NCBI GenBank assembly: GCA_037721215.1 | Contig: JBBJNV010000002.1 | Coordinates: 62,001 to 126,000, forward strand | DNA from: Gemmatimonadaceae bacterium | GTDB taxonomy: Bacteria > Gemmatimonadota > Gemmatimonadetes > Gemmatimonadales > Gemmatimonadaceae | Length of the DNA: 64,000 bases | Reading direction: 5' to 3' | Shown here: positions 370-15,616 of the stretch, piece by piece | Position numbering within the stretch: the stretch's first letter is position 1 | Layout of the letters: every line of letters begins with the position of its first letter | Notes under the pieces: model-generated | What the model was told of the DNA's origin: nothing | Databases searched by the model: none | What the model saw: the letters and a program-made list of their open reading frames with translations, nothing else | Translations under genes and position numbers: made by a program

Positions 370-654
370 CACCCGGTCAGCCGGGCTTTCACGACCGTCC
401 CAGACGTCCGCGGGTGCCGGTGACTGGCGAGGTGTATTGACCAGGAGGTCTAAGCCAATCATTTCGGCGTTGAGCGCCCGACGCAGGAACTGTTGCCCAT
501 TTTGTGGGCGGAGCCGGCTCAGCGCATCGGTGAGATCGTATCAGGTAAGCGTGCGATTACTGCGGACAGTGAAGTGAACTGCATCTTCCCGTCGTCCACG
601 CAAGGCGGCAAGTTGCGCTGATTGCGGCACAGACCCCCAAGGCCACAGCACTCA
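370..654. other. Intergenic region upstream of the purine operon
   Basis: There is no convincing gene here. The short open frames are on the opposite strand and have arginine/cysteine-rich, non-protein-like composition. The promoter of the plus-strand xanthine dehydrogenase block should lie in this stretch, but I cannot point to a clear -35/-10 pair or operator. Confidence 0.5.
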
Positions 655-2769
655 ATGTCAGCAGTCGGCAACAGCGTCGCGCGCAAAGACGGAATCGGGA
701 AGGCCACCGGTGCCGCTCTCTACGCCGACGATATCGTATTTCCAGGCATGATCCACGGCCGGACAATCCGATCGACGATCCCGTGTGGCCGCATTCGCTC
801 CATTCGGTACGACTTCGACACCACCGGCTTCACAATTGTCGACTTCCACGACGTACCATCGAAGAACATCGTCGACCTCATGGTGCAGGACCAGCCATTT
901 CTGGCCGAGCGGGAAGTGCGGCACATGGCGGAGCCGATCGTGCTGCTGGCGCACGAAGATCGCGAAACACTGAACGCGGCAAAGGTCACGATCGAGTACG
1001 AAGAAGATCCGCCGCTGTTCGATCCCGAACTCTCGACGCAGATATTCAAGACGGTGGAAATTCTGAAGGGCGACGCGGCCGGCGCATTCGCATCCGCAGA
1101 CATCGTCGTCGAGGGGACGTACCGTACCGGCCACCAGGAGCATGTGTACATCGAACCCAACGGAGTGATAGCGGTTCCTGAAGACGGTGGAATCGCAATT
1201 CACGGCTCGGTGCAATGCCCCTTCTACGTGATCAAGGCCCTCCGCTGCCTGCTGGGCTCCGCGCACCCGAACGTACGGGTCATACAGACGGAAACCGGCG
1301 GTGGATTCGGCGGAAAGGAAGAGTATCCGTCGATGATCGCGGGACACGCGGTGATGCTCGCGATGAAGTCCGGACGTCCGGTAAAAATCATCTACGATCG
1401 CGCGGAGGACATGGTCGCCACCACCAAGCGCCACCCGTCGATAGTACGGCACCGTACCGGTGTCATGCGGGATGGGCGGCTCGTCGCAATGGATATCGGT
1501 GTGCTGCTGGACGGCGGAGCGTACGTGACACTGAGCCCGACGGTGCTGTCACGCGGGTGCATCCACGCGGCCGGTCCGTACCGCTGCGACAACATCCGCA
1601 TCCACGGGACCACGGTCTTCACCAACACTCCCCCAAACGGTGCGTTCCGTGGGTTCGGCGCGCCGCAGACGGAGTTTGCCGTCGAAGTCCACATGGACCG
1701 CATCGCTGAAACACTTGGCATGGATCCCGTCGAGCTGCGCAGGATCAATGCACTCCGCCCGGGCGATACCACGGCCACTGGTCAGACACTGCGCGAGGAT
1801 TGCAGCGCACTGATGGTGCTCGAGGAAGCTGTCGAGCGCACTGATTTTCTCCGAAAGCGTCAGGAATATAAGGGATCCCATAGATCGATCGGGCTCTCGC
1901 TGTTCTACCACGGAGCCGGATTCACCGGCGCGGGCGAACGGAATCTGAAATCGAAAGCGAGGCTGGAGCTAACACCCACAGGCGTGCGCATCGCGACCGG
2001 GAGCACCGAGATAGGACAGGGAACTCGCACCATGCACGCGCAGATAGTCACCGACGCGCTCGGCATTCCCTACGAAGACGTTGAAGTTGCGCAGCCAGAT
2101 ACGTCAAAGGTCGCCGACAGCGGGCCGACCGTAGCATCACGCACCTGCATGGTGGTCGGAAAGATCCTCGAAGAATGCGCATACGAGATGAAGGAACGGC
2201 TCGGCGGACTGTCTCCCGCGGAGTACCACACAAGAAATGGAAGTTTCACCGTGGAGCGTACATACGAGCCGCCGGATTGGATACAGTGGGACGATCAGGC
2301 CTACACCGGCGACGCCTATGCCACATATGGGTGGGGATGTGACGTCGCCGAGCTCGAGGTGGATCCCGACACCTTCGAGGTACGCCCGCTCAAGCTCACC
2401 GCGGTTCAGGAGTTCGGGCGCCCCATTCATCCTGCGCTTGCGCGCGGCCAGATCGAAGGTGGCACCGCGCAGGGGTTGGGTTACGCGCTCCTCGAGCGCG
2501 TGGTGATGCGGAATGGCGCGATGGCGAACGGGCAGCTCACCAACTATACCATCCCGACGACGCTCGACACTCCCGAGATCGACGTCGTAATGATGGAGAA
2601 TCCGTATCCAGGCGGACCATTCGGCGCAAAAGGTTTGGGAGAGCTGCCGATGGACGGGCCCGCGCCGGCGGTCGTCAATGCACTGCGCCACATGGGCCTG
2701 GACGTGCGGGAGATTCCAGCGACGCCCGAACTGATTGCGCGATGCGTTCCAGCATCCACCACCCGATGA
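655..2769 (+). CDS. Xanthine dehydrogenase, molybdopterin-binding subunit
   Basis: About 704 aa; the large subunit of a three-subunit xanthine dehydrogenase that oxidises hypoxanthine/xanthine to urate in the cytoplasm. Visible family motifs are GGGFGGKEE near residue 215 (molybdopterin contact), FRGFGAPQ near residue 333 and GAKGLGE near residue 660, whose glutamate is the conserved catalytic base. Length agrees with PucD-type subunits (about 700-760 aa). ATG at 655 is preferred over the in-frame TTG at 622 because the extra 11 residues are not family-like. It is the first gene of a tight block with the Fe-S and FAD subunits, allantoinase and allantoicase, which supports purine rather than CO or nicotinate substrates. 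Confidence 0.88.
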   Translation: MSAVGNSVARKDGIGKATGAALYADDIVFPGMIHGRTIRSTIPCGRIRSIRYDFDTTGFTIVDFHDVPSKNIVDLMVQDQPFLAEREVRHMAEPIVLLAHEDRETLNAAKVTIEYEEDPPLFDPELSTQIFKTVEILKGDAAGAFASADIVVEGTYRTGHQEHVYIEPNGVIAVPEDGGIAIHGSVQCPFYVIKALRCLLGSAHPNVRVIQTETGGGFGGKEEYPSMIAGHAVMLAMKSGRPVKIIYDRAEDMVATTKRHPSIVRHRTGVMRDGRLVAMDIGVLLDGGAYVTLSPTVLSRGCIHAAGPYRCDNIRIHGTTVFTNTPPNGAFRGFGAPQTEFAVEVHMDRIAETLGMDPVELRRINALRPGDTTATGQTLREDCSALMVLEEAVERTDFLRKRQEYKGSHRSIGLSLFYHGAGFTGAGERNLKSKARLELTPTGVRIATGSTEIGQGTRTMHAQIVTDALGIPYEDVEVAQPDTSKVADSGPTVASRTCMVVGKILEECAYEMKERLGGLSPAEYHTRNGSFTVERTYEPPDWIQWDDQAYTGDAYATYGWGCDVAELEVDPDTFEVRPLKLTAVQEFGRPIHPALARGQIEGGTAQGLGYALLERVVMRNGAMANGQLTNYTIPTTLDTPEIDVVMMENPYPGGPFGAKGLGELPMDGPAPAVVNALRHMGLDVREIPATPELIARCVPASTTR

Positions 2770-2828
2770 GAGACTATTTGCGGCGAGGCCGGCCGCTGAG
2801 ACACCTCACGCGCCCGTTTGGTTACCCC

Positions 2829-3314
2829 ATGAAGTTCACGCTGAACGGTGCCGCTACCGACGTCGATGTGCACCCCATGGCACGGCTCATCGATGTGCTG
2901 CGCGAGGACTGCGCTCTCACTGGCACCAAGGAAGGTTGCGGTGAGGGCGAGTGTGGAGCGTGCACAGTGCTGGTGAACGGAGAGCCGGTGTGCTCGTGCA
3001 TCATTCCTGTCGCGCAAGTCGAGAACGCTGACGTTATTACGATCGAAGGCATCGGCGGCGACGACCCGTTGCAGCATCTCTTCATGAACGAGGTCGGCGC
3101 GCAGTGCGGAATCTGCACGCCCGGAATGATCATGGCGGCCCAGGTTCTCGGCCCCGATTCAACGCTGGATGACGTGAAAATCGCGCTCGCCGGAAATCTC
3201 TGCCGCTGCACGGGATACTCGGCGATTTATCGGGCAGTGCTGAAATGGCGCGGGGCAGACGCCGCCGAATCCATCGGGCGTCAGGGCTCCGGCGTAAGTG
3301 GAGTAACACCGTGA
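2829..3314 (+). CDS. Xanthine dehydrogenase, [2Fe-2S] subunit
   Basis: 161 aa, the usual size of the electron-transfer subunit of molybdenum hydroxylases. The N-terminal plant-type ferredoxin cluster is ligated by the cysteines of GCGEGECGACTVLVNGEPVC, and the C-terminal helical [2Fe-2S] domain by QCGICTPGM and LCRCTGY. It carries electrons from the molybdenum cofactor to FAD. ATG at 2829 gives the standard MKFTLNG start. The longer frame from 2742 would overlap the preceding gene and add 29 residues with no family match. It lies 59 bp after the large subunit and 16 bp before the FAD subunit. Confidence 0.9.
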   Translation: MKFTLNGAATDVDVHPMARLIDVLREDCALTGTKEGCGEGECGACTVLVNGEPVCSCIIPVAQVENADVITIEGIGGDDPLQHLFMNEVGAQCGICTPGMIMAAQVLGPDSTLDDVKIALAGNLCRCTGYSAIYRAVLKWRGADAAESIGRQGSGVSGVTP

Positions 3315-3330
3315 GCGGACACGTTGTCGC

Positions 3331-4149
3331 ATGAGAGTCGCGACATCGCAGCTCGACCTGCGACGCGCATCGTCGCTCGACAACGCGCTCGACATTCTCC
3401 GCGACCGCGAGCGAACGCCGATTGCCGGCGCGACCGACCTGTATGTCGCGCTTAACTTCGGCACGCTTGTCCCAAAGCGCTTCGTCGATATCTGGGGTCT
3501 CGATGAGCTGCGTGGAATCTCGGTGCGTGACGACATCCTGGTGATCGGTGCGCTCGCGACGTATTCGGCGCTGATGCGGTCTTCGGTTGTCGCCGAGCGC
3601 CTGCCGATGCTCGCCGAGGCATCGGGGCAGGTGGGTGGGGTGCAGATTCAGAACCGGGGTACGCTTGGCGGGAACATCGCCAACGCGTCGCCGGCGGGGG
3701 ACTCGCTGCCGGTGCTCGCCGCTGCAGATGCTGTTGTCGTGCTGCGCAACGCGGAGCATGAGCGCCGTGTTTCGATCAACGAGTTCTACACGGGATACCG
3801 GGCAACGGTGATGAAGCCGGATGAGCTGATTGTCGCAATCGAAATCGCGGCCGTCGAAGGCAGGCAATGGTTCAGAAAAGTTGGAACGCGTGCGGCTCAG
3901 GCAATATCGAAGATCGTCGTGGCGGGTGTTCGCGGGCCGGCAACGCGGATCGCATTCGGCAGCGTGGCACCCACTGTGGTACGTGCTCCAGAGACCGAAC
4001 GGGCACTCGGCGACGGCGCCAGCATCGATGATGCCGCGGCTGTACTCATGCGAGAGATCAAGCCGATCGACGACATCAGGTCGACGGCGGAATATCGACT
4101 GAGGGTGTCCGCGAATCTGCTTCGCCGGTTCTGGGCCGACACTGCCTGA
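3331..4149 (+). CDS. Xanthine dehydrogenase, FAD-binding subunit
   Basis: 272 aa of the CoxM/PucC medium-subunit family, which binds FAD and passes electrons to NAD+. The FAD-binding signatures are visible: PIAGATDLYV near residues 31-40 and TLGGNIANASPAGDSLP near residue 110. The gene follows the Fe-S subunit at 16 bp, so all three subunits are probably co-translated as a 1:1:1 complex. Its last 8 bases overlap the proposed CTG start of the allantoinase gene. Confidence 0.88.
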   Translation: MRVATSQLDLRRASSLDNALDILRDRERTPIAGATDLYVALNFGTLVPKRFVDIWGLDELRGISVRDDILVIGALATYSALMRSSVVAERLPMLAEASGQVGGVQIQNRGTLGGNIANASPAGDSLPVLAAADAVVVLRNAEHERRVSINEFYTGYRATVMKPDELIVAIEIAAVEGRQWFRKVGTRAAQAISKIVVAGVRGPATRIAFGSVAPTVVRAPETERALGDGASIDDAAAVLMREIKPIDDIRSTAEYRLRVSANLLRRFWADTA

Positions 4150-5449
4150 TTTCATCATTCGCGGCCAGCGGGTCGTCACGGCAGAGGGCCTCGGCCCTGC
4201 ATCGCTTCACATCGCGAGCGGACGGATCAGCCGCGTGGCTGCGTGGGACGATGTCGGTGCGAACGCATCGGTCACGGATGCGGGCGAGTTTCTTGTCATG
4301 CCCGGTCTTGTCGACACCCACGTCCATATCAACGAGCCGGGACGAACTGAATGGGAAGGATTCGAGAGCGCCACGCGGGCGGCGGCGGCAGGTGGCATAA
4401 CGACGATCCTCGACATGCCGCTGAACGCGATTCCGGCGACCACCACCGCCGGCGCGCTTGAAGCAAAGCGGACCGCGGCAAACGGCAAATGCGTCGTGAA
4501 TGTCGAATACATCGGGGGTGTGGTGCCGGGTAACGCTGGCGAGCTGCCGGGTCTTCGCGACGCGGGAGTACGCGCTTTCAAATGCTTTCTCGTGCCCTCA
4601 GGGGTGGAAGAATTTCCCGCCGTTACCGAAACCAACCTGCGCGTCGCGCTGCCAGTGCTCGCCCGGCTTGGGCTTCCACTGATGGTGCACGCCGAGGATC
4701 CCGCGTGGCTGCTCACCCACCACGGTAGTGGATCGCGCATTTACGCCGACTATCTGGCGTCGCGTCCCGTTGATTCGGAGCGCGCTGCGATCGCGCTCCT
4801 TGTCCGGCTAGTGGAAGAGTATCGGACGCCAATTCACATCGTTCATCTTTCTGCCGCGACCTCCCTCGACCTCGTGCGTGCTGCCCGGGAGGGCGGGCTG
4901 CCGATCACCGTCGAGACATGCCCGCATTATCTCACCTTCGCCGCGGACGATATCCCGGACGGCGCAACCGAATTCAAATGTGCGCCGCCGATTCGTGATG
5001 CCGCCGAGCGGGACGGTCTATGGAACTCCCTCATTGAAGGCGACGTCGATCTCGTCGCATCAGACCACTCGCCGTGCCCGCCCGCGATGAAAGAAACAGC
5101 CGGCGATTTTTTTTCTGCGTGGGGAGGAATTGCGTCGCTGCAGATCGCGCTCGCGGCGGTCTGGACAGGCGCGCGTGAACGCGGTATCTGCGCGGAGCGG
5201 ACAGCTGAATGGATGAGCGCGGCACCGGCCCGGCTCGCGGGGCTCGGCGACAGGAAAGGAAACCTTGCTGCAGGTTGCGATGCAGATATCGTGGTCTGGG
5301 ATCCAGATGCCAGCTTTGTCGTGGATCCCGCGGTTCTTCAGCATCGCCATCCCGTCACTCCGTATGCCGGACGCAAACTATTCGGCAAGGTGCTGGCAAC
5401 CTGGGTCGGCGGACGCCTCGTATTCAGTGACGATCCCTCGTTCCACTGA
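4142..5449 (+). CDS. allB: Allantoinase (probable CTG start)
   Basis: Hydrolyses allantoin to allantoate. It is a cyclic amidohydrolase of the dihydroorotase/hydantoinase superfamily. Metal and carboxy-lysine positions are recognisable: DTHVHINEPG, AFKCFLVPSG (the bridging lysine), MVHAEDP, IHIVHLS, ETCPHYL and DLVASDHSPC. The in-frame GTG at 4235 would remove the first beta strand. The reading frame is open from 4103 and contains no ATG, but a CTG at 4142 yields LPDFIIRGQRVVT, the expected N-terminus, and 435 aa in all (family about 440-460). That start overlaps the stop of the FAD subunit by 8 nt. The gene contains a run of eight T (5107-5114) in otherwise GC-rich sequence. Confidence 0.85.
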   Translation: MPDFIIRGQRVVTAEGLGPASLHIASGRISRVAAWDDVGANASVTDAGEFLVMPGLVDTHVHINEPGRTEWEGFESATRAAAAGGITTILDMPLNAIPATTTAGALEAKRTAANGKCVVNVEYIGGVVPGNAGELPGLRDAGVRAFKCFLVPSGVEEFPAVTETNLRVALPVLARLGLPLMVHAEDPAWLLTHHGSGSRIYADYLASRPVDSERAAIALLVRLVEEYRTPIHIVHLSAATSLDLVRAAREGGLPITVETCPHYLTFAADDIPDGATEFKCAPPIRDAAERDGLWNSLIEGDVDLVASDHSPCPPAMKETAGDFFSAWGGIASLQIALAAVWTGARERGICAERTAEWMSAAPARLAGLGDRKGNLAAGCDADIVVWDPDASFVVDPAVLQHRHPVTPYAGRKLFGKVLATWVGGRLVFSDDPSFH

Positions 5450-5481
5450 CCAATGAAACATTTCCATGTTACGCTTTCCCC

Positions 5482-6519
5482 ATGATCCCAGCTTCCGGTG
5501 ATGCATCCGAAACCCCCGATGCCTCGTTCATGGATCTGCCGGACCTTGCTTCCGAACGGCTCGGCGGGGCGGTGATTGCGGCGAATGATGAATTCTTTGC
5601 GGCGAAAGAGGGATTAACCAGGCTTGGTGCGCCGGAGTGGCGCGAAGGTGCGTACACCGAGCGCGGAAAATGGATGGACGGATGGGAAACCCGGCGCCGG
5701 CGCACTCCCGGCCACGACTGGGCGATCATCCGGCTCGGCGTATCGGGAATCGTACGAGGCGTGGTTATCGATACGAGTTTTTTTACCGGCAACTTTCCGG
5801 AGCACGCCAGCGTCGACGCCTGTGCAATCGGCGGAACACCGTCAGCAGACAGCGTTGCGAGGTCTCAGACACCGTGGGAGCCGCTGCTCGCGCCGTCCCC
5901 ACTCAACGGTAACAGTCAGAATCTGTTCGCTATCGACCGCCATGCAGCGCGCGTGACGCATCTGCGCCTGAACATCTTCCCCGACGGCGGCATCGCCCGG
6001 CTGCGCGTACATGGAGATGTGCTGCCCGATCCGCGGTTGTTCGAGCAGGGCCGCGAAGTCGATCTCGCGGCAATGGAAAGCGGCGGCTTTGTCGTCGCTT
6101 GCAGCGACATGCATTACGGACATCGCCAGAATCTGATCCTGCCAGGCAGGTCGACGCACATGGGCGACGGCTGGGAGACTAAACGGCGTCGCGGACCGGG
6201 GCACGACTGGTCAATTATCCGTCTCGCGCGGCGCGGCTCAATCAATCGCATTGAAATCGATACGGACCATTACAAGGGAAATGCCCCCGGTAGCTGCACG
6301 GTTGAATGCATCGATGCGGAGAAAACAGGCGGAGTCGCATCGATCACTGATTCGGTACAGGAATGGAGCATGCTGCTCGGCGACACGCCGTTGCAGCCGC
6401 ATTCGCGCCATCGGTTCGAGTCCATCGATCAGCGTGCGGCGACGCATGTTCGACTCAGCATCTATCCCGACGGCGGGGTAGCGCGGCTGCGCCTCATCGG
6501 AACGGCTGCTCCGCAATGA
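5482..6519 (+). CDS. alc: Allantoicase
   Basis: 345 aa. Cleaves allantoate to ureidoglycolate plus urea. The protein shows the internal duplication of the family: DGWETRRRRTPGHDW in the first half and DGWETKRRRGPGHDW in the second, each followed by IIRL and later by a YPDGG/FPDGG segment and ARLR. Length matches bacterial and yeast allantoicases (about 330-350 aa). It lies 32 bp after allantoinase. Its TGA overlaps the ATG of the next gene (ATGA, 6516-6519), indicating translational coupling. Confidence 0.92.
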   Translation: MIPASGDASETPDASFMDLPDLASERLGGAVIAANDEFFAAKEGLTRLGAPEWREGAYTERGKWMDGWETRRRRTPGHDWAIIRLGVSGIVRGVVIDTSFFTGNFPEHASVDACAIGGTPSADSVARSQTPWEPLLAPSPLNGNSQNLFAIDRHAARVTHLRLNIFPDGGIARLRVHGDVLPDPRLFEQGREVDLAAMESGGFVVACSDMHYGHRQNLILPGRSTHMGDGWETKRRRGPGHDWSIIRLARRGSINRIEIDTDHYKGNAPGSCTVECIDAEKTGGVASITDSVQEWSMLLGDTPLQPHSRHRFESIDQRAATHVRLSIYPDGGVARLRLIGTAAPQ

Positions 6520-7358
6520 CTCTTACGGTGCATGATTTCAACGCGCTTCCGGCGGACGCATCCGCCGAGCTGCTGAGGTCGTGCTGCGGTTCCTCGCGAT
6601 GGGTCGACGAGATGATCGGCCGGAGGCCCTTCGGCTCGCTCGACGCGCTCCTGCTTGCAGCTGACCAGGCCTGGGCATCGACCGATGCGGGCGACTGGCA
6701 TGAAGCTTTCGCCCATCACCCGCGGATCGGTGAAACGCAGAGCGTCGCGGCTCAGGATGCGCGTGCGTCGTCATGGTCGCGCGCGGAACAAGAAGCGATC
6801 GGCGCGGCATCCGAAGGAACGCAGGCGGAGATCGCTGACATGAACAAGGAGTACGAGCGTCGCTTCGGCCACATTTACATCGCGTGCGCAAACGGAAGGA
6901 CGCCGAGTGAGTTGCTGACTGTCGCCAGGAAGCGCCTGGCAAACGATGCCGATATCGAGCTGCGGACGGCAGCCGATGAGCAGCGGCAGATAACGCAGCT
7001 CCGATTGCGGAAACTGTTCGGGGGACGAATGATTACCATCAGCACCCACGTACTCGACACGGCGCTCGGCAAACCTGCCGCGGGTATTCGAGTGGCGCTT
7101 TCCCGGGGAGATGCCGCTATCGGGTCTGGGACGACAGATGCCGACGGCCGCGTTCGCGATTTGAATGCAGCGGGAGTTGCGCTTGCGGAGGGAGAGTATC
7201 GACTGGCCTTCGCCGTTGGTGAGTACTTCGACGCGACTGCACGTGAGGCGTTCTATTCAGAAGTCGTGGTCAGTTTTCGTATCAATGGCGGAGGAGAGCG
7301 CTACCACGTGCCTCTGCTGCTCAGTCCGTTCGGATATTCCACATATCGCGGGAGTTGA
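6516..7358 (+). CDS. Fused OHCU decarboxylase / HIU hydrolase
   Basis: A 280-aa bifunctional enzyme. Residues 1-168 are a 2-oxo-4-hydroxy-4-carboxy-5-ureidoimidazoline decarboxylase (UraD) with HHPRIG at 67-72 (catalytic His), the Glu of SRAEQ near 91, and FGHIYIACANGRTP. Residues 173-280 are a transthyretin-like 5-hydroxyisourate hydrolase with STHVLD at 176-181, YHVPLLLSPFGYSTYRGS and the diagnostic YRGS C-terminus. Together the two halves convert HIU to S-allantoin. The start at 6516 overlaps the allantoicase stop. An upstream frame to 6363 lies wholly inside allantoicase and is not used. The domain order is the same as in plant allantoin synthase. Confidence 0.92.
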   Translation: MTLTVHDFNALPADASAELLRSCCGSSRWVDEMIGRRPFGSLDALLLAADQAWASTDAGDWHEAFAHHPRIGETQSVAAQDARASSWSRAEQEAIGAASEGTQAEIADMNKEYERRFGHIYIACANGRTPSELLTVARKRLANDADIELRTAADEQRQITQLRLRKLFGGRMITISTHVLDTALGKPAAGIRVALSRGDAAIGSGTTDADGRVRDLNAAGVALAEGEYRLAFAVGEYFDATAREAFYSEVVVSFRINGGGERYHVPLLLSPFGYSTYRGS

Positions 7359-7385: not shown

Positions 7386-8419
7386 ATGGAAATCGGCGTC
7401 TATACTTTCGCTGAAGTGAACCCTGATGAGGCTACCGGTTCGCCGGAGCAGGCTGGCCAGCGACTTCGCGATCTGATCGAGGAATCGAGCTCGCCGACGA
7501 GGTAGGCCTGGACGTCTTCGGCGTCGGCGAGCATCACCGTCCTGATTACGCCGTGTCTGCACCTGCGGTCGTCCTCGCCGCGGCAGCAACCCGTACAAAG
7601 AACATCAGGCTCACCAGCGCAGTCACGGTCCTCAGCTCCGACGATCCGGTGCGTGTGTTCCAGGACTTTGCGACGCTCGATCTTCTGTCTGGCGGGCGGG
7701 CGGAAATCATGGCCGGTCGAGGGTCGTTCATAGAATCTTTTCCGCTGTTTGGCTACGACCTCGACGACTACAGCGACCTTTTCTCGGAAAAGCTCGACCT
7801 TCTGCTGAAGCTGCGTGATTCGGTGAAAGTCAACTGGGCAGGCAGTCATCGAGCGCCGATAGATGGGCTTGGGGTGTACCCGAGACCGCTCCAGAATCTG
7901 CTGCCAGTGTGGATTGCTGTTGGTGGAACCGCGCAGTCTGTCGTACGCGCGGCGACCCTGGGGCTTCCCATGGCGCTGGCGATCATCGGGGGACAGCCAG
8001 CGCGCTTTGCGTCACTCATCAATCTGTACCGCCACACGGCGGAGAAGGCCGGGCGCGATCCAGCCGCGATGCGGGTGAGCATCAACTCGCACGGGTTCAT
8101 CGGAGACGACTCGCGGCAGGCAGCCGACGATTTCTTTCCGCCATATGCCGAGGTAATGACGAGGGTTGGCGCCGAGCGGGGCTGGCCGCCAACGACGCGG
8201 CGGGATTTTGAGCAGGCGCGTCTGCTGCACGGGGCTCTCGCAGTCGGAAGTCCGCAGGAAGTGATCGACAAAATCCTCTATCAATACGAGATCTTCCGTC
8301 ACGACCGTTTCCTCATGCAACTCACCGTCGGACCGCTGCCGCACGCAAAGGTGATGCGCGCCATCGAGCTGTTCGGCACCAGGGTCGCCCCTGTGATCAG
8401 GAGGGAAACCTCGGCCTGA
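7386..8419 (+). pseudogene. LLM-class flavin-dependent oxidoreductase, frameshifted
   Basis: A luciferase-like monooxygenase family protein. The ATG at 7386 gives [18 protein letters not shown], the usual N-terminus, but the frame ends at a TAG at 7503. The rest ([16 protein letters not shown] onward, to RRETSA) continues in a second frame to 8419. The break lies near 7480-7490, where GAGGAATCGAG would read through as GAGGAAATCGAG with one more A. A repaired gene would encode 344 aa, the normal family length. It follows the OHCU/HIU fusion by 27 bp, so it belongs to the same operon; a role in the purine pathway is not known. The frameshift may be real decay or a one-base sequence error. Confidence 0.8.
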
Positions 8420-8438: not shown

Positions 8439-8524
8439 CCGATCGAGAGAGAACCCCGATAGGCGGCGCTACAACCTCCCACCGATGGAGAGAGAACCCC
8501 GATTGGCGGCGCTATAACCTCCCA
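8439..8524. repeat. Two tandem copies of a 43-bp unit
   Basis: Copies at 8439-8481 and 8482-8524 are identical except for three substitutions (C/G, A/T, C/T). The unit includes the last codons and stop of the minus-strand puuD gene, so copy 1 is a duplicated gene tail lying between the two convergent transcription units. Confidence 0.85.
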
Positions 8525-9726
8525 CCGGCGCGCGCGCCGGCGGCGATCCACCTGCCGAGTAGCGCGCGCTCGGCGTCCGTGATATTCGACTTGTTGCCGG
8601 GCGGCATCGTCCGCGTGACGACGGCCCGCTCCCGGATGCGCGCTGCGTGGGCGATGATCTGCCCAGGCGTGTCGAACATCACGCCGCCTGGTGCAACACC
8701 GAACGATCGATCAGCCGGTTCACTCGAATGGCATACCGTGCAACGCTGGTCGATGACGTGCCGTGCATCCTCAAATGTCAATGGCCCTCGGGAGCCAGCG
8801 ACGGACTGTCGGGGCGCGGCCCCAGCATGGATTATGACGTACAGGGCTACGACACTCGACGCAATCGTCGCTGCGAGTGCCGGTTTCCAGTGCGGGTACG
8901 TAAATCGGATGTTGAGAGCATGACGAACTCCGGCGCCAGCAGCGACCATGACCAGAAGGAGCAGCCAATTATATGGGTGCCCATATAATCCTGGAAAATG
9001 ACCACTCAACATCAGTGCGATGACCGGGAACGTGAGATAGTTGTTGTGAAGCGATACGCGCTTCGCCCTCGCCGCGATCACCGGATCCGCGCCCCTGCCT
9101 TCGCCCACCGATTTCACCAGTTCGCGCTGGGAAGGCATGAGGGTCTCGGCGACGTTCGCCGCCATGATCGTTCCAAGCATGGCGCCTGCATGCAGGAAGG
9201 CGGCCCGTCCGCTCAACAGCTGCGTCAATGCAACGGAGATCGCCGCGAGCGCCACGACCCACGCGACCACCGCAACCGTCTCCGATTTCGGTGCGACCGA
9301 GCGTTGCATGGTTTCGTAGAAAGCGCGACCCAGTACCAGGGCGCCGACGCCTACAGCAACCGCCTGCCAGTGGCTCAAACCTGCAACCAGAGGGTCGGCC
9401 AGCACCGCCCGCCCGCCTGCGTAGTACACGACGATCAGCAACGCAATCCCGCTGATGAAGGTCGTGTACGCCTGCCACTTGAACCAGTGCAGAGGTGCGG
9501 GGAGTTTCTCGCCCTTCAGCGGCGTCTTCTCTACGTAGTAGAACCCGCCCGAATGAAGCAGCCAGATGGTACCGATTGGCGAGCGCGTGTGCCCGGGGCC
9601 GGTTGCACCAATCAGCGATCGGTCAAGCCAGTTGAAGAGGAGAGAATTGCCCACCCACATGATCGCAGCGATCACATGAACCCACCGTGCAATCAGGTCC
9701 AGCAGCTCCACGGTCTGCCCGCTCAC
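8512..9726 (-). CDS. puuD: Membrane urate oxidase with C-terminal cytochrome c (PuuD)
   Basis: 404 aa. The N-terminal about 310 residues form a polytopic membrane domain beginning VELLDLIARWVHVIAAIMWVGNS, with conserved FNWLDRSL, GGFYYVEK, HWFKW and NNYLTFPVIALML segments. The tail is a c-type cytochrome with heme motif CTVCH at 329-333 and a likely axial Met at 374 (TMPPGN). This is the PuuD family, which oxidises urate to 5-hydroxyisourate using the electron transport chain rather than O2 directly. GTG at 9726 is chosen: it overlaps the stop of the upstream gene (GTGA, 9726-9723). The longer frame to 10077 is antisense-like inside that gene. It supplies the urate oxidation step missing from the plus-strand block. 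Confidence 0.9.
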   Translation of the reverse strand: MSGQTVELLDLIARWVHVIAAIMWVGNSLLFNWLDRSLIGATGPGHTRSPIGTIWLLHSGGFYYVEKTPLKGEKLPAPLHWFKWQAYTTFISGIALLIVVYYAGGRAVLADPLVAGLSHWQAVAVGVGALVLGRAFYETMQRSVAPKSETVAVVAWVVALAAISVALTQLLSGRAAFLHAGAMLGTIMAANVAETLMPSQRELVKSVGEGRGADPVIAARAKRVSLHNNYLTFPVIALMLSGHFPGLYGHPYNWLLLLVMVAAGAGVRHALNIRFTYPHWKPALAATIASSVVALYVIIHAGAAPRQSVAGSRGPLTFEDARHVIDQRCTVCHSSEPADRSFGVAPGGVMFDTPGQIIAHAARIRERAVVTRTMPPGNKSNITDAERALLGRWIAAGARAGGRL

Positions 9727-11081
9727 ATCCGTCCTTTCATGATCCTGACGAACGAACGTTGCCGGAAATCTTCGGGGGTAAGTCCGGTCATTTCCAACGC
9801 TTCGGCTTCGGTGATCGCCCCGGAGTTGATTCCGCGCAGAAAGAAATTGAGCAGCCCCTGGCCTGTTGCGGCGTCGTCGAAGACATCGCCAATCAGCGTG
9901 GCCTGTGCCGCTTTGCCGACGAAACTCTTCAATCGCACGCCGGCGGCATCGATGCCCTCGAGGAAAAAACTGTAGAGTGCAGCATACCTGGTTACGAGTT
10001 GCGCCGGATGCAGATCCCACCCCTGATAGAATCCGCCAGACAGCGAATGCCGGACGTCGTCGAAGTGCATCTTCCACGCGGCATGGACGCTCGTTTCGTT
10101 CGCCGCCACCTCGTCAGACGTGAGCGACTTGCCACCCGCAACCGCGCGATGAATCGCAACGGGCATTACCGTTGTCGATCCGTCGGACAGCCAGACATCC
10201 GTACCGGCAAACGCAACCTGCATGAAGTGCTTCGCGAAGTCGCACGCTGGATGCTTCATGCGCTGATACGCAGCCGTAATGTTGCAGCTGGCCGTGTAGT
10301 CGTACGTCCCGAAGTGAGCGCCGCGCAACCGCCCGTCAGACGCGCCGAGCAGCCGCGGCAGCAGCGACGTACCACTCTCGTCCAGAATTATCTGCGGAGT
10401 TTCTACCATCACTTCGAACCGCAGCGTTCCATCGGCAAGACCAAGGTTTTGCTCGAGCACTCGAAGTACGTTAACCGTGTATTCCACCTGCTGAATCACA
10501 GTGACCTTTGGAACGGTGACGATCCAGTTTTCCGGAATGCCGCCAGCCTCGACAAGAGCGGTCGTCACCATATCCAGGGTGCGAATGCTGCGGCCGCGGA
10601 GCTCCTCGGTGAGCGGTTTGATTCGCATTCCGATGAATGGCGAAAGCGTCTTCTCTCTCATCCCCTTCGCGACTTCGTGAGCGACCGACTCGGCGTGACC
10701 ATCTTCTTCGGCATCGGGCCGGTTGCCGTACCCATCCTCGAAGTCGATGCGAAAATCCTCGATCGGCTCGCGGACCAGTTTGTCGCGAAGTCTCTGGTCG
10801 ATGACGGCAAGCGAAGAATGATCGAGAATGCCGAGCGCGCGTCCGAGGTCGGCGGGATCCGCGGCGTACTGTGTCAGCGCGCGTAAGGCGATCGATCCGA
10901 GCTTTGGGACCGAATCAGCAGAAAACAACTGCGCCCCGCCGTACACAGTATGAACGGGCTGGCGACCCGGACCCTCGCCAGGATGCGCACTGGCAAAGGC
11001 GATATTCGCCTCGCGCAACGAATCTGTGGCATCGGCGAGCATCGAGGGTTCGAGAGTAGTGGCTGACGGATGTCGACTCAT
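9723..11081 (-). CDS. DUF6986-type HpcH/HpaI aldolase/citrate-lyase-fold protein
   Basis: 452 aa, a TIM-barrel protein of the citrate lyase beta / HpcH-HpaI / malate synthase-like superfamily. Acidic and basic positions typical of the fold are visible: FRIDFEDGYG near residue 112, IGMRIKPL, RFEVMVETPQII (metal-ligand Glu) and GAHFGTYDYTASCNI. From memory, relatives called DUF6986 occur beside urate and allantoin genes in actinobacteria. The substrate is unknown. It is translationally coupled to puuD by a 4-nt overlap. No ureidoglycolate lyase is seen in this window, so a role in processing ureidoglycolate or glyoxylate is attractive but inferred. Confidence 0.75.
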   Translation of the reverse strand: MSRHPSATTLEPSMLADATDSLREANIAFASAHPGEGPGRQPVHTVYGGAQLFSADSVPKLGSIALRALTQYAADPADLGRALGILDHSSLAVIDQRLRDKLVREPIEDFRIDFEDGYGNRPDAEEDGHAESVAHEVAKGMREKTLSPFIGMRIKPLTEELRGRSIRTLDMVTTALVEAGGIPENWIVTVPKVTVIQQVEYTVNVLRVLEQNLGLADGTLRFEVMVETPQIILDESGTSLLPRLLGASDGRLRGAHFGTYDYTASCNITAAYQRMKHPACDFAKHFMQVAFAGTDVWLSDGSTTVMPVAIHRAVAGGKSLTSDEVAANETSVHAAWKMHFDDVRHSLSGGFYQGWDLHPAQLVTRYAALYSFFLEGIDAAGVRLKSFVGKAAQATLIGDVFDDAATGQGLLNFFLRGINSGAITEAEALEMTGLTPEDFRQRSFVRIMKGRM

Positions 11082-15034: not shown

Positions 15035-15616
15035 TCAGCCGTTGTAGATTTTCCCGCTTCGTTCCCGATACAGCTCGAGCACTGCGCGTGCCTCGTCGCG
15101 CAGAACGGCCCGCTCGATTCTGATGCCGCGGTCTTCGAGATACCGGTAAGATTCGGGGAAGACCGGCCCTTCTTCGAAATTGAGGCGGGACGCGTCGTCG
15201 CGGGTAGCTCCGTACACAACTCGCTCGACACCGCTCCAGAGCGTTGCGCCGAGGCACATCGCACATGGCTCGCACGAAGTGAAGAGCTCGTGGGCGCTCA
15301 GGTGCGGGGCGTTAAGCGTGAACGAGCCTAACCGCTGCTGGGCCATCATGAATGCGACCATCTCGCCGTGGAGCGTGCAGTTGTTGTGGCGCACCACGCT
15401 GTTCATGCCTGCCGCAATCACCCTCCCTGAGCCCGATTCAAAAATTGCGGCGCCGAAGGGGCCACCGTCCCCGCGCTCGACATTTACCCGCGACAGCGTG
15501 ATTGCAAGCCGCATCCGCTCGTCATCGGACTCGAAGCGATGATTCCAATCCACGACCTCGTTCACCCACGAGGGGTACTCCACATGCACCACGGGGTGCG
15601 GCATGCCTGTCGTCAT
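15035..15616 (-). CDS. Nucleoside/guanine deaminase (CDA fold)
   Basis: 193 aa. A zinc-dependent cytidine-deaminase-fold enzyme with the TLHGEMVAF segment (zinc His and catalytic Glu) and TSCEPCAMCLG (two zinc cysteines). Bacterial guanine deaminases of the GuaD type and tRNA adenosine deaminases share these motifs. The length, the C-terminal tail with FPESYRYLEDRGI and the purine-catabolic neighbourhood favour deamination of guanine to xanthine. The start at 15616 (MTTGMPHP) could equally be the internal ATG at 15604. It is the first gene of the minus-strand block, 155 bp upstream of the TonB receptor. Confidence 0.8.
   Translation of the reverse strand: MTTGMPHPVVHVEYPSWVNEVVDWNHRFESDDERMRLAITLSRVNVERGDGGPFGAAIFESGSGRVIAAGMNSVVRHNNCTLHGEMVAFMMAQQRLGSFTLNAPHLSAHELFTSCEPCAMCLGATLWSGVERVVYGATRDDASRLNFEEGPVFPESYRYLEDRGIRIERAVLRDEARAVLELYRERSGKIYNG

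What the first reader, a model, noticed from the sequence alone, without database searches (positions are those of the whole stretch)
9723..11081. DUF6986 protein as candidate for the missing ureidoglycolate/glyoxylate step
The pathway stops at ureidoglycolate and no AllA-type lyase or amidohydrolase is visible. The one uncharacterised enzyme-like protein is a citrate-lyase/malate-synthase-fold TIM barrel that shares a 4-nt overlap with puuD. Its fold suits chemistry on glyoxylate-like C2 substrates.
Basis: inference. Interest (0 to 1): 0.6.

Follow-up and report, generated by a model that had tools for sequence, protein, structure and literature searches.

The report
Malate-synthase-like enzyme for purine breakdown
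An uncharacterised bacterial protein family (DUF6986) travels with the genes that break down uric acid in many phyla; its fold and active-site residues suggest that it joins the toxic end-product glyoxylate to acetyl-CoA, making malate, rather than splitting ureidoglycolate as first proposed.

Summary
Window 9723-11081, minus strand, encodes a 452-aa full-length DUF6986 (PF22484, 585.8 bits) that overlaps puuD by 4 nt, in a purine cluster (XDH, AllB, Alc, UraD-UraH, PuuD). No AllA was found in the 96.6%-complete genome. The purine link is strong: in 249 Gemmatimonadota genomes DUF6986 is in 26 of 29 allantoicase-positive genomes and 14 of 220 others (p = 5e-22), and it sits in purine clusters in many other phyla. 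The fold is malyl-CoA lyase / malate synthase (best Z 27.8). Every catalytic residue shared by the CitE-like enzymes and malate synthases is (nearly) invariant. An invariant Tyr fills the position that is Ala in malyl-CoA lyases but Leu or Trp in malate synthases. This points to condensation of glyoxylate with acetyl-CoA. The ureidoglycolate-lyase half is disfavoured: in Myxococcota, 35 of 43 DUF6986-positive, Alc-positive genomes also carry AllA. One fact remains awkward: AllA and DUF6986 never share an alc cluster there (0 seen, about 7 expected), so a direct role on ureidoglycolate is not excluded. No enzyme assay exists. I classify it as a new variant of a known kind.

The parts
9723..11081 (-). 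DUF6986 (PF22484) protein, 452 aa; proposed glyoxylate + acetyl-CoA condensing (malate-synthase-like) enzyme. Catalytic set: D113/E115/D116 (DFED), R153, E227 and D261 (Mg ligands), Y260, W355/P359, lid D402/D403
8512..9726 (-). puuD, membrane cytochrome-c urate oxidase (Urate_ox_N + C-terminal haem motif); GTG start overlaps the DUF6986 stop by 4 nt
622..4149 (+). xanthine dehydrogenase: Mo subunit (622-2769), 2Fe-2S subunit (2742-3314), FAD subunit (3331-4149)
4235..5449 (+). allB, allantoinase
   Evidence: TIGR03178 516.9 bits, cut-off 357.85
5482..6519 (+). alc, allantoicase (makes ureidoglycolate + urea)
   Evidence: TIGR02961 429.6 bits, cut-off 277.9
6363..7358 (+). uraD-uraH fusion (OHCU decarboxylase + HIU hydrolase); the true start lies within the listed ORF
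15035..15616 (-). cytidine-deaminase-family protein, probably guanine deaminase; relatives sit beside DUF6986 in other loci (L004, L010, L063, L067-L069)

Best explanation
DUF6986 is a malate-synthase-type enzyme dedicated to the end of purine (ureide) breakdown. Allantoicase makes ureidoglycolate. This breaks down to urea and glyoxylate, on its own, through Alc, or through AllA where present (inferred). DUF6986 binds glyoxylate on Mg2+ (E227, D261; D113/E115/D116 order the metal waters and the arginine). R153 and the lid aspartate (D403, next to invariant D402) enolise acetyl-CoA, whose methyl carbon attacks glyoxylate to give malyl-CoA and then malate. Shown here: genetic linkage to allantoicase, fold, and conservation of the catalytic residues and of motifs matching CoA-contacting positions. 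Inferred: substrate identity, thioester hydrolysis and the physiological role.
For: (1) Linkage: 26 of 29 Alc+ against 14 of 220 Alc- Gemmatimonadota genomes carry DUF6986; by genus 18 shared, 3 Alc-only, 3 DUF-only of 110. Same-strand allB-alc-uraD-uraH-uox-DUF6986 runs occur in Acidobacteria (L034, L040, L056, L079), and DUF6986 lies beside guaD and an AllE-like gene in Tsukamurella. A congener without Alc (G063) keeps only DUF6986 fragments. (2) Fold: 4l9y malyl-CoA lyase with Mg, glyoxylate and propionyl-CoA, Z 27.8 over 296 residues; Haloferax malate synthase 24.6, MSA 22.9. Profile matches: MCL E 0.0011, MSG 0.03-0.16; family members score up to 34 bits on PF01274; hhalign with MSA E 3.4e-4. 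(3) Residues named in PMC3832036 as shared by CitE-like enzymes and malate synthases: D113, E115, D116, R153, E227, D261 and D402 in 50/50 sequences, D403 in 49/50. (4) Specificity mark: Ala before the Mg-Asp in malyl-CoA lyases, Leu454 in MSG, Trp277 in MSA; Tyr260 in 50/50 DUF6986; Ala in the six in-phylum MCL-like sequences in which the motif was found. (5) Motifs matching CoA/keto-acid contacts in MSH/MSA: T45 47/50, W355 50/50, P359 49/50, P307 50/50. (6) The own genome has no canonical malate synthase, isocitrate lyase or glyoxylate carboligase match. (7) A Myxococcota genome without a full DUF6986 (G419) has puuD-allB-alc, allA and malate synthase A on one strand within a few kb.
Against: No enzyme assay exists. 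P0001 itself is below the PF01274 cut-off (19.4 against 26.4 bits). Canonical malate synthase coexists with DUF6986 in 14 of 26 Alc+ Gemmatimonadota and most Alc+ Myxococcota, so DUF6986 would often be a second isozyme. AllA and DUF6986 are never both within 15 kb of alc in 54 Myxococcota genomes (0 seen, 7 expected, p = 1e-5 ignoring phylogeny); this looks like alternative enzymes for one step. DUF6986 also occurs in 14 Gemmatimonadota genomes without Alc. What makes malate synthases hydrolyse malyl-CoA is unknown (PMC3832036), so a malyl-CoA product cannot be excluded.
Confidence: 0.6

Rival explanations
1. Ureidoglycolate lyase by a new fold. Mg2+ and R153 would activate the hydroxyl of ureidoglycolate, the C-N bond would break as in the retro-aldol of malyl-CoA, and the lid aspartate would protonate the leaving urea.
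For: No AllA in the own genome or in any of 29 Alc+ Gemmatimonadota. AllA and DUF6986 sit in the same slot after alc-uraD and exclude each other in Myxococcota clusters. In Gordonia DUF6986 is followed by urease.
Against: 35 of 43 DUF6986+ Alc+ Myxococcota genomes also have AllA, and the two are not anticorrelated genome-wide (Fisher p = 1). AllA is almost absent from Gemmatimonadota anyway (5 of 249, none with Alc), so its absence there says little. Motifs matching CoA-contacting residues and the lid aspartate are kept. Three Alc+ genomes lack both genes.
Confidence: 0.13
2. Malyl-CoA lyase type: it makes (or cleaves) malyl-CoA reversibly, and a separate thioesterase completes the step.
For: Best structural matches are malyl-CoA lyases and CLYBL; best sequence-profile match is an MCL. 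In Gordonia a PaaI-type thioesterase gene overlaps DUF6986 by 4 nt.
Against: The Ala that is 100% conserved in MCLs is an invariant Tyr here. No thioesterase was seen as a recurrent neighbour in 80 loci, although rarer neighbours were not exhaustively annotated.
Confidence: 0.13
3. A CitE-superfamily enzyme acting on another keto acid or CoA thioester, only loosely tied to purines.
For: Fourteen Gemmatimonadota genomes have DUF6986 without Alc; in genus g65 it overlaps a Zn-dehydrogenase gene, and in G136 it precedes a proline racemase and a BKACE gene.
Against: Strong co-occurrence with Alc by genome and by genus and repeated operons across phyla. The subfamilies sampled without Alc keep the same active-site residues.
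Confidence: 0.06

Closest known systems
Malate synthases A, G and H (EC 2.3.3.9)
   Same: TIM barrel with C-terminal lid; DxED, Arg, Glu/Asp Mg ligands and lid Asp; bulky residue before the Mg-Asp; motifs matching the Pro that packs on adenine and the Trp at -4. DFED and (E/D)DAAT motifs match MSA letter for letter
   Different: Very low sequence identity; P0001 is below the PF01274 cut-off; the N-terminal domain and five-helix cap of MSA/MSG are not seen; activity untested
Malyl-CoA lyases (R. sphaeroides 4l9y, M. extorquens 5ugr, C. aurantiacus 4l80)
   Same: Closest fold (Z 26.4-27.8); same catalytic residues
   Different: Tyr260 replaces the invariant Ala; about 450 aa against about 320-350; NCBIfam malyl-CoA lyase match is 23.9 against a cut-off of 500 bits
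AllA ureidoglycolate lyase (PF04115, EC 4.3.2.3)
   Same: Occupies the same operon slot after alc-uraD in other genomes
   Different: No sequence relationship detected; different Pfam family; AllA is nickel-dependent (PMC3793230)
HpcH/HpaI aldolases (PF03328)
   Same: Superfamily fold; some DUF6986 members reach the PF03328 cut-off (L105, 34 against 25 bits)
   Different: P0001 itself gives no match; DUF6986 keeps a C-terminal lid with the catalytic aspartate

Membership tests
DUF6986 (PF22484) | full-length match above the gathering score | tested here: met
   585.8 bits, cut-off 27, profile positions 2-408 of 408
Malate synthase / CitE-like superfamily | DxED, Arg, Glu and Asp Mg ligands, lid Asp | tested here: met
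   D113 E115 D116 R153 E227 D261 D402 in 50/50, D403 in 49/50, against PMC3832036
Malate synthase / CitE-like superfamily | TIM barrel with C-terminal lid | tested here: met
   AF2 pLDDT 90.8; aligned to 4l9y over residues 25-419, Z 27.8
Malate synthase (PF01274) | Pfam MS_TIM-barrel match above cut-off | tested here: not met
   the window protein scores 19.4 against 26.4 bits; some relatives pass, up to 34.2 bits
Malate synthase | bulky residue before the Mg-Asp | tested here: met
   Tyr260 in 50/50; Leu454 in MSG, Trp277 in MSA
Malate synthase | acetyl-CoA + glyoxylate to malate + CoA | not testable with these tools
   needs an enzyme assay
Malyl-CoA lyase | invariant Ala before the Mg-Asp | tested here: not met
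   Tyr in 50/50 DUF6986; Ala in the MCL-like comparators where the motif was found
Malyl-CoA lyase (NF041626) | match above the curated cut-off | tested here: not met
   23.9 against 500 bits
AllA ureidoglycolate lyase (PF04115) | PF04115 domain | tested here: not met
   no PF04115 match at E <= 0.001 in the protein or in its genome
HpcH/HpaI aldolase (PF03328) | Pfam match above cut-off | tested here: not met
   no match for P0001; relative L105 34.0 against 25

The most novel reading that the evidence does not exclude
DUF6986 uses ureidoglycolate itself as a masked glyoxylate donor: in one active site urea is expelled and the Mg-bound glyoxylate is condensed with acetyl-CoA, merging the AllA and malate synthase steps. 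This would explain why DUF6986 and AllA never share an alc cluster in the Myxococcota sample, and why a cluster without DUF6986 carries both allA and malate synthase.
Probability: 0.08. Interest if true: 0.75.

Novelty: new variant of a known kind. Interest (0 to 1): 0.5.

Why it matters
It would give a testable function to a widespread domain of unknown function and explain how many soil bacteria that lack the glyoxylate shunt, glyoxylate carboligase and AllA finish purine breakdown and dispose of toxic glyoxylate. It would add another malate-synthase-like group (beside A, G and H). Purine-derived nitrogen and carbon routes in Gemmatimonadota, Acidobacteria and Myxococcota could then be annotated to the end.

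Tried and rejected
(a) Single-sequence search of the PDB found nothing useful; the 50-sequence profile did. (b) Two PF04115 matches in DUF6986-bearing Acidobacteria (L082, L083) lie between respiratory complex I genes and are not the alc-linked AllA; they were not counted as AllA. (c) AllA absence in Gemmatimonadota was first read as support for a lyase role, but AllA is nearly absent from the whole phylum, so the comparison was moved to Myxococcota. (d) Glyoxylate carboligase: only sub-threshold matches, taken as other ThDP enzymes. (e) Malate synthase presence in Alc+ genomes with or without DUF6986 (14/26 against 3/3) is not significant (p = 0.25). (f) hhalign did not align the C-terminal lid; that equivalence rests on the motif and on predicted secondary structure (hairpin 395-402, helix 404-420). 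T45 was matched to MSA Thr95 by motif only. (i) No paper in the PMC library holds 'DUF6986'.

Full report
OBSERVATION. The finding is real and placed correctly. Window 9723-11081 on the minus strand encodes 452 aa, a full-length match to PF22484 (585.8 bits). Its stop codon overlaps the GTG start of puuD by 4 nt. On the plus strand at 622-7358 lie xanthine dehydrogenase, allantoinase, allantoicase and a UraD-UraH fusion. The genome (3.5 Mb, 96.6% complete) has no PF04115 ureidoglycolate lyase.

LINK TO PURINES. Of 80 DUF6986 loci fetched from many phyla, 40 have allB, 37 alc, 35 uraD/uraH, 25 xanthine dehydrogenase, 22 puuD and 13 uricase within about 10 kb, by simple ORF clustering in which the window itself was included; many of these loci are short contigs, so the counts are probably low. 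Several Acidobacteria show a same-strand run allB-alc-uraD-uraH-uox-DUF6986 (L034, L040, L056, L079). In Actinobacteria it sits between guaD and an AllE-like gene (Tsukamurella), between a polysaccharide-deacetylase-type gene and a nucleobase symporter (Paenarthrobacter), and between a thioesterase and the urease operon (Gordonia). In 249 Gemmatimonadota genomes at least 85% complete, strong DUF6986 matches occur in 26 of 29 Alc+ genomes and 14 of 220 Alc- genomes (odds ratio 128, p = 5e-22; by genus 18/3/3/86, p = 8e-15). In the window's own genus, genomes with Alc have DUF6986; one without Alc (G063) keeps only fragments.

FOLD AND ACTIVE SITE. AlphaFold2 on a 50-sequence alignment gave pLDDT 90.8, pTM 0.88. 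The best structural matches are R. sphaeroides malyl-CoA lyase with Mg, glyoxylate and propionyl-CoA (Z 27.8, rmsd 2.5, 296 residues), human CLYBL (26.8), other malyl-CoA lyases, Haloferax malate synthase (24.6) and E. coli / B. anthracis malate synthase A (22.9). Zarzycki and Kerfeld (PMC3832036) list the residues common to the CitE-like superfamily and malate synthases. The equivalents here are D113/E115/D116, R153, E227 and D261, invariant in 50/50 sequences, and D402 (50/50) / D403 (49/50) at the hairpin-helix junction of the lid, where malate synthases carry their catalytic base. The same paper gives a specificity mark: the residue before the Mg-binding Asp is Ala in all malyl-CoA lyases, Leu454 in malate synthase G and Trp277 in A. 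In DUF6986 it is Tyr260 in 50/50; in the six malyl-CoA-lyase-like sequences of the same phylum where the motif was found it is Ala. Motifs matching CoA and keto-acid contacts in malate synthases are kept: Thr45 (47/50), Pro359 (49/50), Trp355 and Pro307 (50/50). Motif to motif, DUF6986 reads DFED / VETP...YDYTAS / GWDLHP / FDDAAT where a malate synthase A from a DUF6986-bearing genome reads DFED / IETL...WDYIFS / GTWVAHP / MEDAAT. Sequence homology is weak but statistically visible.

WHICH STEP. Two readings compete: release of glyoxylate from ureidoglycolate, or use of glyoxylate. For use: the residue set above, and the own genome's lack of canonical malate synthase, isocitrate lyase and glyoxylate carboligase matches. 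Among Alc+DUF+ Gemmatimonadota 12 of 26 have no canonical malate synthase and none of these 12 has isocitrate lyase; the three Alc+ genomes without DUF6986 all have a canonical malate synthase (not significant, p = 0.25). Ureidoglycolate decays spontaneously to glyoxylate and urea (PMC3793230), so the pathway can run without a lyase gene. The decisive comparison needs genomes where AllA also varies. In 54 Alc+ Myxococcota genomes, searched with a joined AllA + DUF6986 + malate synthase A query, AllA and DUF6986 occur together in 35, AllA alone in 9, DUF6986 alone in 8 and neither in 2: no avoidance genome-wide. That speaks against DUF6986 being merely a stand-in for AllA. In G419, which lacks a full DUF6986, allA and malate synthase A lie 38 bp apart on the strand of alc, allB and puuD; in G465, also without DUF6986, a second malate synthase gene lies near alc-allA. 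This fits malate synthase as a natural last step.

WHAT DOES NOT FIT. Within 15 kb of alc, AllA is present in 20 and DUF6986 in 19 of the 54 genomes, yet never both (7 expected; p = 1e-5 without correction for relatedness). They take the same slot after alc-uraD, even in genomes that keep the other gene elsewhere. This may be a clade effect or may mean alternative routes from ureidoglycolate. It keeps alive a direct lyase role and a merged reaction (ureidoglycolate + acetyl-CoA to malate + urea). DUF6986 also exists in 14 Gemmatimonadota genomes without Alc, in other gene contexts with the same active-site residues in the members sampled, so its substrate may come from other sources there.

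VERDICT. DUF6986 works like a malate synthase of the CitE / malyl-CoA lyase superfamily and is best described as a candidate glyoxylate + acetyl-CoA condensing enzyme of the ureide pathway (confidence 0.6). It is not filed as a member of the PF01274 malate synthases (cut-off not met by this protein), of the malyl-CoA lyases (Ala mark and NCBIfam cut-off not met), or of AllA.

Noticed in passing
L107:6856-7581 and L108:6934-7671: Two Alc+ Gemmatimonadota genomes without DUF6986 carry a short BKACE-family (PF05853) gene directly upstream of allB; possibly another way to handle the ureide end-product.
   Followed up: partly
L082, L083 (about 1420-1965): A PF04115 (AllA-like) gene sits between respiratory complex I genes in two Acidobacteria genomes; function unknown, likely not ureidoglycolate lyase.
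   Followed up: partly
L100:8934-11299 and L096:8970-12462: DUF6986 outside purine clusters: overlapping a Zn-dehydrogenase gene (genus g65), or followed by a proline racemase and a full-length BKACE gene (G136).
   Followed up: partly
L118:8468-14820: Gordonia plasmid p174: PaaI-type thioesterase overlapping DUF6986 by 4 nt, then a full urease operon.
   Followed up: no
L113 (G063): Congener without allantoicase retains only DUF6986 fragments beside XDH genes; looks like joint loss.
   Followed up: partly
L114 (G203): DUF6986 copy with an in-frame TGA in an Alc+ genome that also has canonical malate synthase and isocitrate lyase.
   Followed up: no
window 7553-8419: Luciferase-like monooxygenase (Atu2307/SP_0267 family) between uraD-uraH and puuD; role in the cluster unclear.
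   Followed up: no
L064, L065, L074: Melainabacteria-type allB-uraD-uraH-DUF6986 clusters without alc; alc is elsewhere in L074's genome and not found in the other two (incomplete MAGs).
   Followed up: partly
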